Below, piece by piece: positions 8,965 through 45,371 of a stretch of DNA of 64,000 nt. Each line of letters opens with the position of its first letter. Position 1 is the stretch's first letter. The notes under the pieces were generated by a model, which saw nothing but the letters and a program-made list of their open reading frames with translations, was not told where the DNA came from and ran no database searches. The position numbers were made by a program, and so were the translations under genes. The DNA comes from a virus: positions 1 to 64,000 of the IMG/VR virus record IMGVR_UViG_3300021142_000007; one strand, written 5' to 3'.

Positions 8965-10752
8965 CTATTTTGTTCCGCTAAATAACCACAAGAATTGTCC
9001 TGTTGGGTCTTGCATATTTTTAGCCACCGTAGGGTTGAATTTTGGTTTTGGCATCGCTGCCTTATTTCTGTTATTTTTACTTACAAATCCACTTCCTTTT
9101 TCAAGTTCAATCTGTTCTAGTGTCTTGGTATTACCTATCACCCAACTATTTAAGATTGCTTTGTTTTGCTTTTCAAGACGCTCAAGATTTTTGAATGAGT
9201 GTTCGAGAACCCATAGACACATAGCCAGTGACATCAACAAGTCATCATGGTATCCATCCATGTGGTCAGGTCTACCATTCTTGTAAACAAATGTTTTCAT
9301 CTCCATAGCAAGTCTCATCGAACGAATCTTAACCGCATTGGTTCTTATCTTGTATTCAAGATTTGAAACCATAGGAAGCCTTACGTTTGTTGCATGGAAA
9401 CCTGGCGTTTTGCTGTTCGTATCGTATCTTGATAGTTCTCTTTGTCTAGCGGATAGTATCTTACCATTGGTTGTTTCGTAGTGTAGTCTCTTGTAGTTAA
9501 ATTCCATGAGCTTTAATACGGTAGAAACACCCATACCACCAGTTACATCCACTACGGTATATGCCTTGTATTGTTCTCCGTATTCCTCGACCAATTGAGC
9601 CAATAAGTCTGGTTGTATCTTTCCTTTGTACTCCAATACCTGTTCCATGGTCGTGAAATCAATGATTACAATGGTTGATGAATCCTCTCCATCACCCCTT
9701 GAAACGTCTACGCCCATAATATACTGATGACCCTCTTGTGGAAGTTCCCATATCCAAGTATCCTTATCGGCACCAAGCATTATTATTGGTTCCTTTACGT
9801 TATTTTTTATCTGTAGGTCTATGAATTGTTCATCAATAACGTTACCTCCCGAACCAATAAATGACACATCAAGCTCTTGTGCAATCATCTTAGCATCGTT
9901 GTTCATACCTTCGCACATTTCTTCATACCAACTAGATGTTGGTTTCCAACCATCTGATATTCTCTTTTCGTAAGATGCAAATGTAAACTCGGTTTCTAGT
10001 TCAATAACATCATCTTTTACCCAACGCAAATCCTTATTATATCTCAAGTCTTCATACCATTTCATTTCAATGATATTAAAACCGTTCTTTTTTTGTTTTG
10101 CAAGGTCGTATGTTTTGTAGTAGAGTTCGTCCATACCACGTGGAGTAGATATAAGCATCGCTCTACCACCCGTACCCAACGCTGTTAATGCAGCACCAAA
10201 CACTTCGGCACCGTTATCGATATATGCTGCTTCATCCATAACAAGATACGTAGGTGTAAAACCTCTTAACGCATCCTTAGAGGTTGCAACGGCCTTAACA
10301 CGACTACCATTAGGTAACTTTATTTCTTGTTTAGAATCTGTAAGAAAAATGGTTTTCTTTTCGTTTTTAGGGTTACCGTAGTAATCTGGTCCCCAAATCC
10401 ATCTGGGTAGCTGGTCTAGGAAGTCTTTAATCTTGCTTAAGAATTCAAAAGCCAATGCTTGTTTGTTGGCGATAATCAATACGTTCTCTGGGTTATCTGA
10501 ATCTGCTAATCCAACCTTTACGGCCATGTAAGCTGCTGTTGTGGTTGATACACCAGCCTGTCTTGGTTTGGTAATTAGATTAAACCTATTATTCTCGTAA
10601 GCGTATATGATTTCTTTTTGTTTTGGAAATAACTTGAAAGGAACAAAGCCCTCTTGGGTCTTGTCGAACGTTTCAAAGAATGTCTCGATTGCGTATACTG
10701 GACTTGCCAAACACTTTGCGTATTCTTTAAGTATTTCACCTCTTGTTAGCAT
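8965..10752 (-). CDS. Terminase large subunit, T4 gp17-like
   Basis: 595 residues, close to T4 gp17 (610). The ATPase domain has a Walker A variant KPRQAGVST (62-70), Walker B YLVMDEAAY (169-177) and the coupling motif STPRG (202-206). The RNase H-like nuclease domain has MGVDVSRGDG with Asp349, VVDVTGG with Asp402, and GYHDDLLMS near the C terminus as the acidic cluster. It packages DNA into the prohead by headful cutting, as expected for this family. An exact late box lies 9 bases upstream. Confidence 0.95.
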   Translation of the reverse strand: MLTRGEILKEYAKCLASPVYAIETFFETFDKTQEGFVPFKLFPKQKEIIYAYENNRFNLITKPRQAGVSTTTAAYMAVKVGLADSDNPENVLIIANKQALAFEFLSKIKDFLDQLPRWIWGPDYYGNPKNEKKTIFLTDSKQEIKLPNGSRVKAVATSKDALRGFTPTYLVMDEAAYIDNGAEVFGAALTALGTGGRAMLISTPRGMDELYYKTYDLAKQKKNGFNIIEMKWYEDLRYNKDLRWVKDDVIELETEFTFASYEKRISDGWKPTSSWYEEMCEGMNNDAKMIAQELDVSFIGSGGNVIDEQFIDLQIKNNVKEPIIMLGADKDTWIWELPQEGHQYIMGVDVSRGDGEDSSTIVIIDFTTMEQVLEYKGKIQPDLLAQLVEEYGEQYKAYTVVDVTGGMGVSTVLKLMEFNYKRLHYETTNGKILSARQRELSRYDTNSKTPGFHATNVRLPMVSNLEYKIRTNAVKIRSMRLAMEMKTFVYKNGRPDHMDGYHDDLLMSLAMCLWVLEHSFKNLERLEKQNKAILNSWVIGNTKTLEQIELEKGSGFVSKNNRNKAAMPKPKFNPTVAKNMQDPTGQFLWLFSGTK

Positions 10753-44105: not shown

Positions 44106-44315
44106 TTACATATGGTGACTATACTTGTTAATTAATGCTTTTGCTTCAGATATGAACGAAAGTCTGTCAATAGTTGTTTCGCATAAGCTACCATGTGTTT
44201 CTTCTTCGTATTGGACGCGCTTATCCGCTAGTTTATCTAATTTGTTAAGCCTATCCAAAATAAGGCTCATTTCCTTTGCCATCTTTAGTCTTAGTTGTGG
44301 TTCTTTGTTTGTCAT
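44106..44315 (-). CDS. Early helical protein (69 aa)
   Basis: Start at MTNKEPQLRLKMAKEM; the longer frame is promoter sequence translated. Coiled helices, two Cys. Function unknown. Confidence 0.72.
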   Translation of the reverse strand: MTNKEPQLRLKMAKEMSLILDRLNKLDKLADKRVQYEEETHGSLCETTIDRLSFISEAKALINKYSHHM

Positions 44316-44335
44316 GTGTGTTTTGATTGATAGGG

Positions 44336-44365
44336 CAAAGATACTAATTAAATTCATATTTCCAA
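44336..44365 (-). promoter_or_regulatory. Host-type promoter
   Basis: Minus strand TTG, 19-base spacer, TATCTTTG at 44336-44343; nearly identical to 44588-44617 over 35 bases. Confidence 0.78.
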
Positions 44366-44366
44366 A

Positions 44367-44567
44367 TTAATTTGTTGCTAATTTGAAGATTATTTTTTGC
44401 ACCTTTTTATGTCCTGAATGATAGCTGTCTCCGAATAGGCTTTTACCCATAAATGAGTCCCCTTTTATATTATTGCCTGAGACGGTCTTCATTTCGTCAT
44501 TATGTAGAATTGTGTCGCCAGCTTGGATATTTGAGATGTGTGTTTCTAGTATGCTATAATTGTACAT
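44367..44567 (-). CDS. Early hypothetical protein (66 aa)
   Basis: Start at MYNYSILETHISNIQAGDTI for the same reason as the previous gene. A small beta domain with HNDEMKTVSGNNIKGDSF, basic end. Function unknown. Confidence 0.7.
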   Translation of the reverse strand: MYNYSILETHISNIQAGDTILHNDEMKTVSGNNIKGDSFMGKSLFGDSYHSGHKKVQKIIFKLATN

Positions 44568-44587
44568 GATTGATTGATTTGATAGGG

Positions 44588-44617
44588 CAAAGATACTAAT
44601 TAAATTCATATTTCCAA
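44588..44617 (-). promoter_or_regulatory. Host-type promoter
   Basis: Minus strand TTG, 19-base spacer, TATCTTTG at 44588-44595. Confidence 0.78.
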
Positions 44618-44986: not shown

Positions 44987-44991
44987 CTTCA

Positions 44992-45031
44992 AAAAAAGTG
45001 GGGCTACTATTTGGTAGTCCCATTTCTTTTT
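44992..45031 (+). terminator. Rho-independent terminator
   Basis: GGGGCTAC / GTAGTCCC followed by ATTTCTTTTT. The right arm is shared with the tRNA-like gene promoter. Confidence 0.75.
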
Positions 45032-45041
45032 CATATATTTG
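45011..45041 (+). promoter_or_regulatory. Host-type promoter of the tRNA-Leu-like gene
   Basis: TTG at 45011, 20-base spacer, TATATTTG at 45034-45041. The expected start of transcription is within one or two bases of the tRNA 5' end. Confidence 0.75.
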
Positions 45042-45047
45042 CATTAT

Positions 45048-45179
45048 AATCGGGTGGCGAAATTGGTAGACGCACATAGAGTCATGGTGAAGCACTTTGT
45101 AAAAAGAAAGCCCATGTTTAAGTTTAAAGCTATCTATGATTGGTTGCAAACAATGCAGGTTCGAGTCCTGCTCCGATTA
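45048..45179 (+). tRNA. tRNA-Leu-like gene with an insertion in the anticodon loop
   Basis: Acceptor AATCGGG (45048-45054) pairs with TCCGATT (45172-45178), with discriminator A45179 and no encoded CCA. D arm GCG/CGC with AAATTGGTAGA as in bacterial tRNA-Leu. Long type II variable arm ATTG/CAAT. T arm GCAGG-TTCGAGT-CCTGC. The anticodon stem CATAGA (45075-45080) / TCTATG (45133-45138) is present, but 52 bases lie between instead of 7 or fewer. They include a hairpin CATGG/CCATG (about 45083-45116). No normal anticodon can be assigned. An intron, an anticodon-less tRNA mimic or a broken gene are the options. Confidence 0.7.
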
Positions 45180-45194
45180 CTTAAATCAATCAAT

Positions 45195-45332
45195 ATGTTA
45201 CTACTAGGTAAAAACCCAGAGATAACAGCTATCTTTGATTGTCAGCTTCAGTACTATATCGTTTATAAGAATGGTCAGGTATTGGTCAGTCACAAGTATC
45301 GCTACCGAGACATCGAGAGTTATCTTAATTAA
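45195..45332 (+). CDS. Small hypothetical protein (45 aa)
   Basis: Starts at the ATG of MLLLGKNPEITAIFDCQLQY, 15 bases after the tRNA-like gene; a longer frame would run through the tRNA-like sequence and is rejected. The end is basic (VSHKYRYRDIESYLN). Probably co-transcribed with the RNA. Function unknown. Confidence 0.65.
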   Translation: MLLLGKNPEITAIFDCQLQYYIVYKNGQVLVSHKYRYRDIESYLN

Positions 45333-45338
45333 AATGAA

Positions 45339-45366
45339 AAGGCCCGAATTTCTTCGGGCTTTTTTG
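45339..45366. terminator. Terminator
   Basis: GCCCGAA / TTCGGGC hairpin with four A on the left and six T on the right. It ends the plus-strand unit and may also stop the minus-strand operon 46.1-45.4 kb. Confidence 0.85.
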
Positions 45367-45371
45367 TTTGA

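What the first reader, a model, noticed from the sequence alone, without database searches (positions are those of the whole stretch)
45048..45179. tRNA-Leu-like gene with an extra hairpin in the anticodon loop
Acceptor, D arm, long variable arm and T arm form a normal type II tRNA with A73, but 52 bases lie between the two anticodon-stem strands. They include a CATGG/CCATG hairpin and give no standard loop with U33 and an anticodon. The promoter is placed so that transcription would start at the tRNA 5' end. The insert is too small for a group I intron. Options: a new short intron, an anticodon-less tRNA mimic acting on leucyl-tRNA synthetase, RNase P or tRNA nucleases, or a decayed gene.
Basis: seen in the sequence. 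Interest (0 to 1): 0.76.

Follow-up and report, generated by a model that had tools for sequence, protein, structure and literature searches.

The report
Phage tRNA-Leu look-alikes without anticodon
A phage gene that looks like a leucine tRNA but has other RNA folds where the anticodon should be belongs to a large family of such look-alike RNAs in uncultured phages, sometimes a dozen per phage, whose job is unknown.

Summary
Window 45048-45179 has an intact tRNA-Leu shell (7-bp acceptor, Leu-type D arm, 5-bp T arm, U48, A73). 52 bases lie between the strands of a 6-bp anticodon-stem equivalent, with no usable anticodon loop. ARAGORN and Rfam find no tRNA there.

It is not a one-off. The same 135-kb phage has a second such gene (record 81506-81608, minus). 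A covariance model built from 49 other phage elements, neither copy included, finds them at 73.0 and 68.1 bits (E 1.3e-16 and 2.5e-15). Loci held (5.02 Mb) gave 493 distinct tRNA-like elements that ARAGORN does not call; a reversed-sequence control gave 2 hits in all. Many share the acceptor AGTCAGG and lie in same-strand arrays of up to 12 per record. Shells covary strongly. Interiors differ, but several recur between phages with covarying stems and pseudoknots.

Best reading: natural tRNA-shelled RNAs. Host tRNA enzymes, probably LeuRS included, would accept the shell; the interior, which cannot decode, is the working part. Function is inferred. The window copy's own interior fold is not supported statistically. 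Intron, canonical tRNA and tmRNA readings fail. Decay is unlikely but not excluded for this copy.

The parts
45000..45031 (+). terminator-like hairpin GGGGCTAC/GTAGTCCC followed by a T-rich run
   Evidence: sequence; the unit 44988-45051 recurs at 78-89% identity at four places in three related records (G022, G024 twice, G025), where at least G025 has no tRNA-like RNA behind it
45034..45041 (+). TAnnTTTG (-7 box of Bacteroidota promoters, recalled) placed so that transcription would start at or near the tRNA 5' end
   Evidence: sequence; the same motif lies 4-9 nt upstream of 21 of 490 uncalled elements in other loci
45048..45179 (+). anticodon-less tRNA-Leu-like RNA, whole element
   Evidence: R1 73.0 bits, E 1.3e-16
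45048..45054 (+). acceptor 5' strand AATCGGG (partner 45172-45178)
   Evidence: 7 of 7 pairs
45057..45073 (+). D arm with A14, A15, G18G19
   Evidence: sequence; LeuRS determinants as reviewed in PMC9976931
45075..45138 (+). anticodon-stem equivalent CATAGA/TCTATG with a 52-nt insert (45081-45132) that includes CATGG/CCATG
   Evidence: sequence
45139..45154 (+). short variable arm ATTG/CAAT; its loop TTGCAAA could pair with TTTGTAA 45096-45102
   Evidence: sequence; this kissing fold is no better than shuffles (53 of 300 as good)
45155..45171 (+). T arm
   Evidence: 5 of 5 pairs
45172..45179 (+). acceptor 3' strand and discriminator A73; no CCA encoded
   Evidence: sequence
45195..45332 (+). 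small ORF (45 codons) downstream, possibly on the same transcript
   Evidence: in-frame part of the ORF listed; not tested for coding
45340..45368 (+). terminator-like hairpin and T run that could end the transcript
   Evidence: sequence

Best explanation
The gene makes a tRNA-Leu-shaped RNA that cannot decode. It keeps the acceptor, D and T arms, U48 and A73. From these I infer that host RNase P/RNase Z, the CCA-adding enzyme and probably leucyl-tRNA synthetase treat it as tRNA-Leu. Where the anticodon should be it carries a different RNA fold. It is one member of a phage family, often in arrays, in which a conserved tRNA-like shell holds many different interiors. I think the shell gives tRNA-like maturation, stability and access to tRNA-binding proteins, and the interior is the working part. 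The likeliest action is in trans, as mimic or decoy for host proteins that act on tRNA, for example infection-triggered tRNA nucleases that find no anticodon to cut. Shown: shell, family, arrays, covariation of shell and of some interiors, absence of an anticodon. Inferred: expression, processing, charging and the decoy role.
For: Model R1 finds both copies of this phage at E 1.3e-16 and 2.5e-15 although neither was in it. A finder that asks for T arm, paired acceptor and D-loop GG gives 1249 sites in 5.02 Mb against 2 in the reversed control; of 1098 distinct, 493 are not called by ARAGORN, with A73 in 414 and U48 in 420. Anchored only on T arm plus acceptor 3' strand, in loci first fetched by that scan, 139 distinct elements include 104 uncalled and only 7 called tRNA-Leu; 60 of the 104 keep A14A15, D-loop GG and U48 together. 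Copies per record reach 12, all on one strand, 0 in the mirrored-pattern control. Shell pairs: 98.8% of 735 cells paired, 158 cells changed on both sides against 33.5 in shuffles (acceptor and T-stem pairing was a selection criterion). Interiors: compensatory pseudoknot changes in three classes; H-type pseudoknots beat all 30 shuffles in 43 of 221 elements, 7.1 expected. Of 350 interior homologue sites, 334 sit in an intact shell. A review states that A73, A15-U48, G18G19 and A20a matter for E. coli LeuRS, and that tRNA-Leu without anticodon and variable arms is still charged (PMC9976931, passages).
Against: No expression, processing or charging data. The window copy's interior has no homologue in the loci held and no fold better than shuffles. 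Only 60 of 104 unbiased elements keep the full Leu set, and some replace the D arm too, so charging by LeuRS is not the common denominator of the family. No neighbouring protein family is clearly associated, so no partner points to a target.
Confidence: 0.6

Rival explanations
1. A decayed tRNA-Leu gene: an ordinary phage tRNA-Leu that took an insertion in its anticodon loop and is dying.
For: Interior fold of this copy not better than shuffles; no homologue of its interior found; phage tRNA genes do decay (general knowledge).
Against: All shell stems intact, promoter placed at the tRNA start, a second anticodon-less copy in the same phage, and a family whose shells covary while interiors recur across phages with different acceptors. 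Random decay would hit shell and interior alike.
Confidence: 0.17
2. A processing or stability element: the tRNA-like shell is cut out of phage transcripts by RNase P/RNase Z, so that it trims or protects the mRNA of the small ORF at 45195-45332; the interior is filler.
For: Promoter, tRNA-like RNA, small ORF and terminator lie in one unit; other elements with an adjacent promoter also have an ATG within about 30 nt downstream (L308, L526).
Against: Many elements lie in arrays among ordinary tRNA genes; interiors recur with covarying structure, which filler would not.
Confidence: 0.13
3. A tRNA-Leu with a new short intron in the anticodon loop.
For: A 6-bp stem encloses the insert; the excess over a 7-nt loop is 45 nt.
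Against: ARAGORN with introns allowed gives scattered anticodons; no anticodon-type stem-loop beyond shuffles in 284 elements; interiors from 43 to over 130 nt without a splice-site motif that I could see; no group I intron hit in the window.
Confidence: 0.04
4. A miniature tmRNA: tRNA-like part plus a tag-coding insert.
For: Anticodon-less tRNA-like part with pseudoknots in some relatives; tmRNA genes occur in 8 of 463 viral loci checked.
Against: ARAGORN's default scan of the window covers tmRNA and finds none; no Rfam tmRNA hit; insert far shorter than tmRNA's; Leu-type rather than tmRNA-type ends.
Confidence: 0.02

Closest known systems
bacterial tRNA-Leu (type II tRNA)
   Same: acceptor, D arm with A14/A15/G18G19, U48, T arm, A73
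   Different: no anticodon loop; interior of 43 to over 130 nt where ordinary tRNA-Leu has about 31-36 by the same ruler
tmRNA tRNA-like domain (RF00023)
   Same: natural bacterial/phage tRNA-like RNA without anticodon, charged by a synthetase that ignores the anticodon; pseudoknots (recalled)
   Different: no tag ORF; full D arm of tRNA-Leu; mostly 60-190 nt; many different copies per phage
engineered 'tRNA scaffold' for recombinant RNA (PMC3753655, passages read)
   Same: acceptor, D and T arms kept, anticodon stem-loop used as insertion site so that cellular factors recognise the fusion
   Different: here natural, in phage arrays, with evolved interiors
plant-virus tRNA-like structures (recalled)
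   Same: viral RNA that imitates tRNA, with pseudoknots
   Different: those form the 3' end of RNA genomes and their acceptor is itself a pseudoknot; these are separate genes of DNA phages with a regular acceptor
tRNA-Undet genes of Tenacibaculum phage pT24 (LC168164)
   Same: tRNA-like genes without readable anticodon in a cultured Bacteroidota phage; R1 hits at E about 3e-5
   Different: not Leu-type D arm; short interiors

Membership tests
tRNA-Leu | Leu-type shell: A73, A14/A15-U48, G18G19, type II body | tested here: met
   sequence; R1 alignment; the long variable arm is reduced to a 4-bp stem
tRNA-Leu | 7-nt anticodon loop with U33 and NAA/NAG anticodon | tested here: not met
   family level
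intron-containing tRNA | removal of an insert restores a Leu anticodon loop | tested here: not met
   ARAGORN with introns calls Met (cat) for this copy and scattered anticodons for the family
group I intron in tRNA-Leu | group I core (RF00028) | tested here: not met
   no RF00028 hit in the window; insert 52 nt
tmRNA | RF00023 / ARAGORN tmRNA match and tag ORF | tested here: not met
anticodon-less tRNA-Leu-like phage family described here | match to shell model R1 built without this element | tested here: met
   73.0 bits, E 1.3e-16
anticodon-less tRNA-Leu-like phage family described here | interior with conserved or covarying fold | tested here: inconclusive
   no homologue; kissing fold 53 of 300 shuffles as good
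tRNA pseudogene | broken shell pairs, lost promoter | tested here: not met
   all shell pairs intact, promoter-like box present
leucylatable RNA | charging by LeuRS | not testable with these tools
   determinants present; biochemistry needed

The most novel reading that the evidence does not exclude
Phages evolved a natural 'tRNA scaffold' system: batteries of RNAs that all wear the same tRNA-Leu-like coat, so that the host matures and charges them, and that carry exchangeable structured payloads, each aimed at a different host or defence component. The coat-and-payload arrays would be a new genetic system for deploying functional RNAs.
Probability: 0.3. Interest if true: 0.93.

Novelty: new variant of a known kind. 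Interest (0 to 1): 0.8.

Why it matters
If true, hundreds of phage genes passed over by tRNA finders form a family of non-decoding tRNA-like RNAs. They would show that viruses of bacteria use the tRNA coat as a carrier, offer a new class of candidate counter-defence RNAs, and warn that some 'tRNA-Undet' or odd-anticodon calls in phage genomes are not tRNAs. LeuRS is one of the few synthetases that ignore the anticodon, which would explain why this coat was chosen and makes a direct charging test possible.

Tried and rejected
BLAST of the region against named phages: no match. BLAST with a family element and with 30-31-nt family ends: in the two narrow searches only short or partial matches, mostly ordinary tRNA ends of Enterococcus phages; no cultured phage with the AGTCAGG arrays among the rows shown. 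Neighbour-protein enrichment: none clear; the highest clusters were 4 of 8 and 12 of 26 near an element against a 23% background. Kissing-loop fold for the two copies of this phage: not better than shuffles (53 and 65 of 300), so not claimed; the same test gave 0 of 300 for each of three class K members. Syntenic comparison: the contig with a 100% identical terminase (G021) does not reach the element's place, so it says nothing about an empty site. Literature: nine searches showed no description of such a family. I saw listings and starts of abstracts; passages only of PMC9976931, PMC2864571, PMC3753655 and PMC7609411. The 2017 paper of candidate RNA motifs is not held. Absence from print is claimed only for those searches.

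In genome contigs (67 stretches, 52 elements over the length cut) many are ordinary tRNA-Leu with long variable arms or assembly artefacts; by eye I take roughly 20 as family-like. The set of 493 uncalled elements still contains some of these. For model R1 I gave 49 of the 102 elements printed, leaving out the genome-contig ones and a number of viral ones.

Full report
What is there. The window (64 kb of a 135,399-base virus record) carries at 45048-45179 (+) an RNA gene with all outer parts of a bacterial tRNA-Leu: acceptor AATCGGG/TCCGATT, a 3-bp D stem with the tRNA-Leu D loop, T arm GCAGG-TTCGAGT-CCTGC, U48 and A73. ARAGORN and Rfam report only a tRNA-Glu elsewhere in the window, and no tRNA hit here even at E<=5. 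The 132-nt sequence as a whole does not fold better than shuffles. A TATATTTG box lies 6 nt upstream of the tRNA start, behind a terminator-like hairpin; a 45-codon ORF and a terminator-like hairpin follow.

A second copy. The same 22-base D-arm stretch occurs once more in the record, at 81583-81604 (-). It sits in another tRNA-Leu-like element, AGGGGGG...TCCCCCT-A (81506-81608), which ARAGORN does not call but Rfam's tRNA model just passes at 34.4 bits. The phage also has an ordinary tRNA array at about 124.7-128.8 kb, in which ARAGORN calls Lys three times and Gly, Thr, Tyr, Gln and Pro once each; no ordinary tRNA-Leu was called there.

A family. Scanning IMG/VR with the D-arm 22-mer gave mostly ordinary tRNA-Leu genes but also several with long, odd middles. 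To avoid anchoring on the D arm I scanned for the T arm plus acceptor 3' strand alone (again 120 stretches). In the loci first fetched by that scan, 139 distinct elements with a perfect acceptor partner comprise 104 that ARAGORN does not call, 10 with an unreadable anticodon and 7 called tRNA-Leu. A finder on all loci then held (5.02 Mb) gave 1249 sites against 2 in the reversed control; of 1098 distinct, 493 are uncalled, 261 of them with acceptor AGTCAGG. In 20 records chosen from loci of interest, copies per record were 1 to 12, all on one strand, mostly within a few kb. They stand among ordinary tRNAs that have ordinary acceptors.

Selection on the shell. In an alignment of 49 viral elements the 15 shell pairs are paired in 98.8% of 735 cells, with 158 cells changed on both sides (33.5 expected from shuffles); sliding the partners by 1 to 3 columns drops pairing to 36-39%. 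Acceptor and T-stem pairing had been used to pick the elements, so the pairing percentage is partly built in; the variety of pair types at each acceptor position is not. Covariance model R1 from this alignment scores the window copy 73.0 bits (E 1.3e-16) and the second copy 68.1 bits (E 2.5e-15), neither being in the model.

No anticodon, no intron. Among 284 Leu-type uncalled elements a stem with 7-nt loop at the anticodon place occurs in 61, against 57.5 +/- 6.8 after shuffling the interior; among 77 called tRNA-Leu it occurs in 71. The uncalled set is by construction poor in such loops. With introns allowed ARAGORN of 241 elements, with scattered anticodons in the rows I saw.

Interiors. 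They are very diverse (325 singletons of 522), yet classes recur across phages. Class 7 (four phages) has an H-type pseudoknot with three compensatory pairs. Class 4 has two compensatory pairs in its long-range helix. Class 16 has seven pairs with changes on both sides, 0 of 500 shuffles as good. In class K (L264, L211 and L619, the last from a relative of the window phage) the loop of the anticodon-stem equivalent can pair with the variable-arm loop, 0 of 300 shuffles as good in each of the three, while the shells differ in acceptor sequence between L619 and the other two. Of 350 sites homologous to interiors, 334 sit in an intact shell, and most of the 16 listed exceptions have a shell with a small change; a few lie in another D-arm type, or at L211 919-990 in a different stem. 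For the two copies of the window phage the kissing fold is not better than shuffles, so nothing is claimed about their interior fold.

Relatives of this phage. The terminase (8965-10752, -) led to 268 related stretches, 80 kept. In 17 longer related records searched with R1, G026 has a cluster of four hits at 20.9-21.6 kb, at least two of them plainly anticodon-less; G035 (306 kb) has many hits, ordinary tRNAs included; and G022, G024 and G025 have short elements that ARAGORN does not call or gives no readable anticodon. G027 has an ordinary tRNA-Leu. No syntenic counterpart of the window copy was located.

How it may work. The features kept are those that host tRNA enzymes read. A review states that for E. 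coli LeuRS A73, the A15-U48 pair, G18G19 and A20a are needed, that the anticodon is not, and that tRNA-Leu variants lacking anticodon and variable arms are still charged, while the anticodon arm is needed for editing (PMC9976931, passages). So I infer maturation and probably leucylation by the host. CCA is not encoded at this copy. Since the RNA cannot decode and no protein partner is associated, I infer that it acts in trans on tRNA-binding host proteins, with the interior giving specificity. A decoy for tRNA-attacking defence is the guess I would test first; nothing here proves it. The engineered tRNA scaffold, in which RNA is placed in the anticodon stem of a tRNA so that E. coli factors accept it, is the closest functional analogue (PMC3753655, passages).

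Novelty. Neither Rfam 15 nor ARAGORN has the class as such, although Rfam's general tRNA model picks up part of it at 29-41 bits. Nine full-text searches of the open PMC library showed no report of it. The kind (tRNA-like RNA without anticodon) is known from tmRNA and plant viruses (recalled); phage arrays of tRNA-Leu-shelled RNAs with exchangeable interiors appear new. Limits: scans capped and mostly Leu-anchored, no expression data, and the window copy itself rests on its shell and on its family.

Noticed in passing
G000 81506-81608 (-) (L656, L002 1424-1526): Second anticodon-less tRNA-Leu-like gene of this phage, directly after the stop codon of a small ORF; a 199-nt stretch downstream folds somewhat better than shuffles (z -2.0, 9 of 200 as good) with a 12-bp stem.
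   Followed up: partly
L538 / LC168164 192032-192477: Cultured Tenacibaculum phage pT24 has two 'tRNA-Undet' genes in which a hairpin replaces the anticodon loop; a ready experimental system.
   Followed up: partly
L258, L092, L383: Elements whose middle seems to contain another tRNA-like sequence (for example a Gln-type D arm and a T arm nested inside).
   Followed up: no
L658 194-362 (G035): AGTCAGG element with an extra hairpin-like insert in the D loop as well as a long interior.
   Followed up: no
L211 7609-8193 (-): Phage tmRNA directly next to a group I intron, in a locus that also has a class K element.
   Followed up: no
L270, L275, L402, L453, L464, L117, L145, L224: ARAGORN finds tmRNA genes in 8 of 463 viral loci that carry tRNA-Leu-like elements or tRNAs.
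   Followed up: no
L657 457-519 (G035): freshwater-1 RNA (RF02979) at 70.6 bits, just under its gathering score of 72, between two anticodon-less elements.
   Followed up: no
L241, L300, L402, L431, L138, L192: A class with acceptors such as TGTAGGG and G73, a 7-nt loop with GUC in the anticodon place but U33 not conserved, and in most a conserved GGTTGACCAC stretch.
   Followed up: no
window 44367-44609 and 44106-44357 (-): Two small ORFs begin with the same MNLISIFALS; the repeated DNA contains a TAnnTTTG box, so the shared start may be a repeated promoter rather than protein.
   Followed up: no
L659 3739-3823 (G000 about 128237-128322, -): Weak tRNA-Sec-like match (29 bits, gathering 47) inside the phage's ordinary tRNA array.
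   Followed up: no
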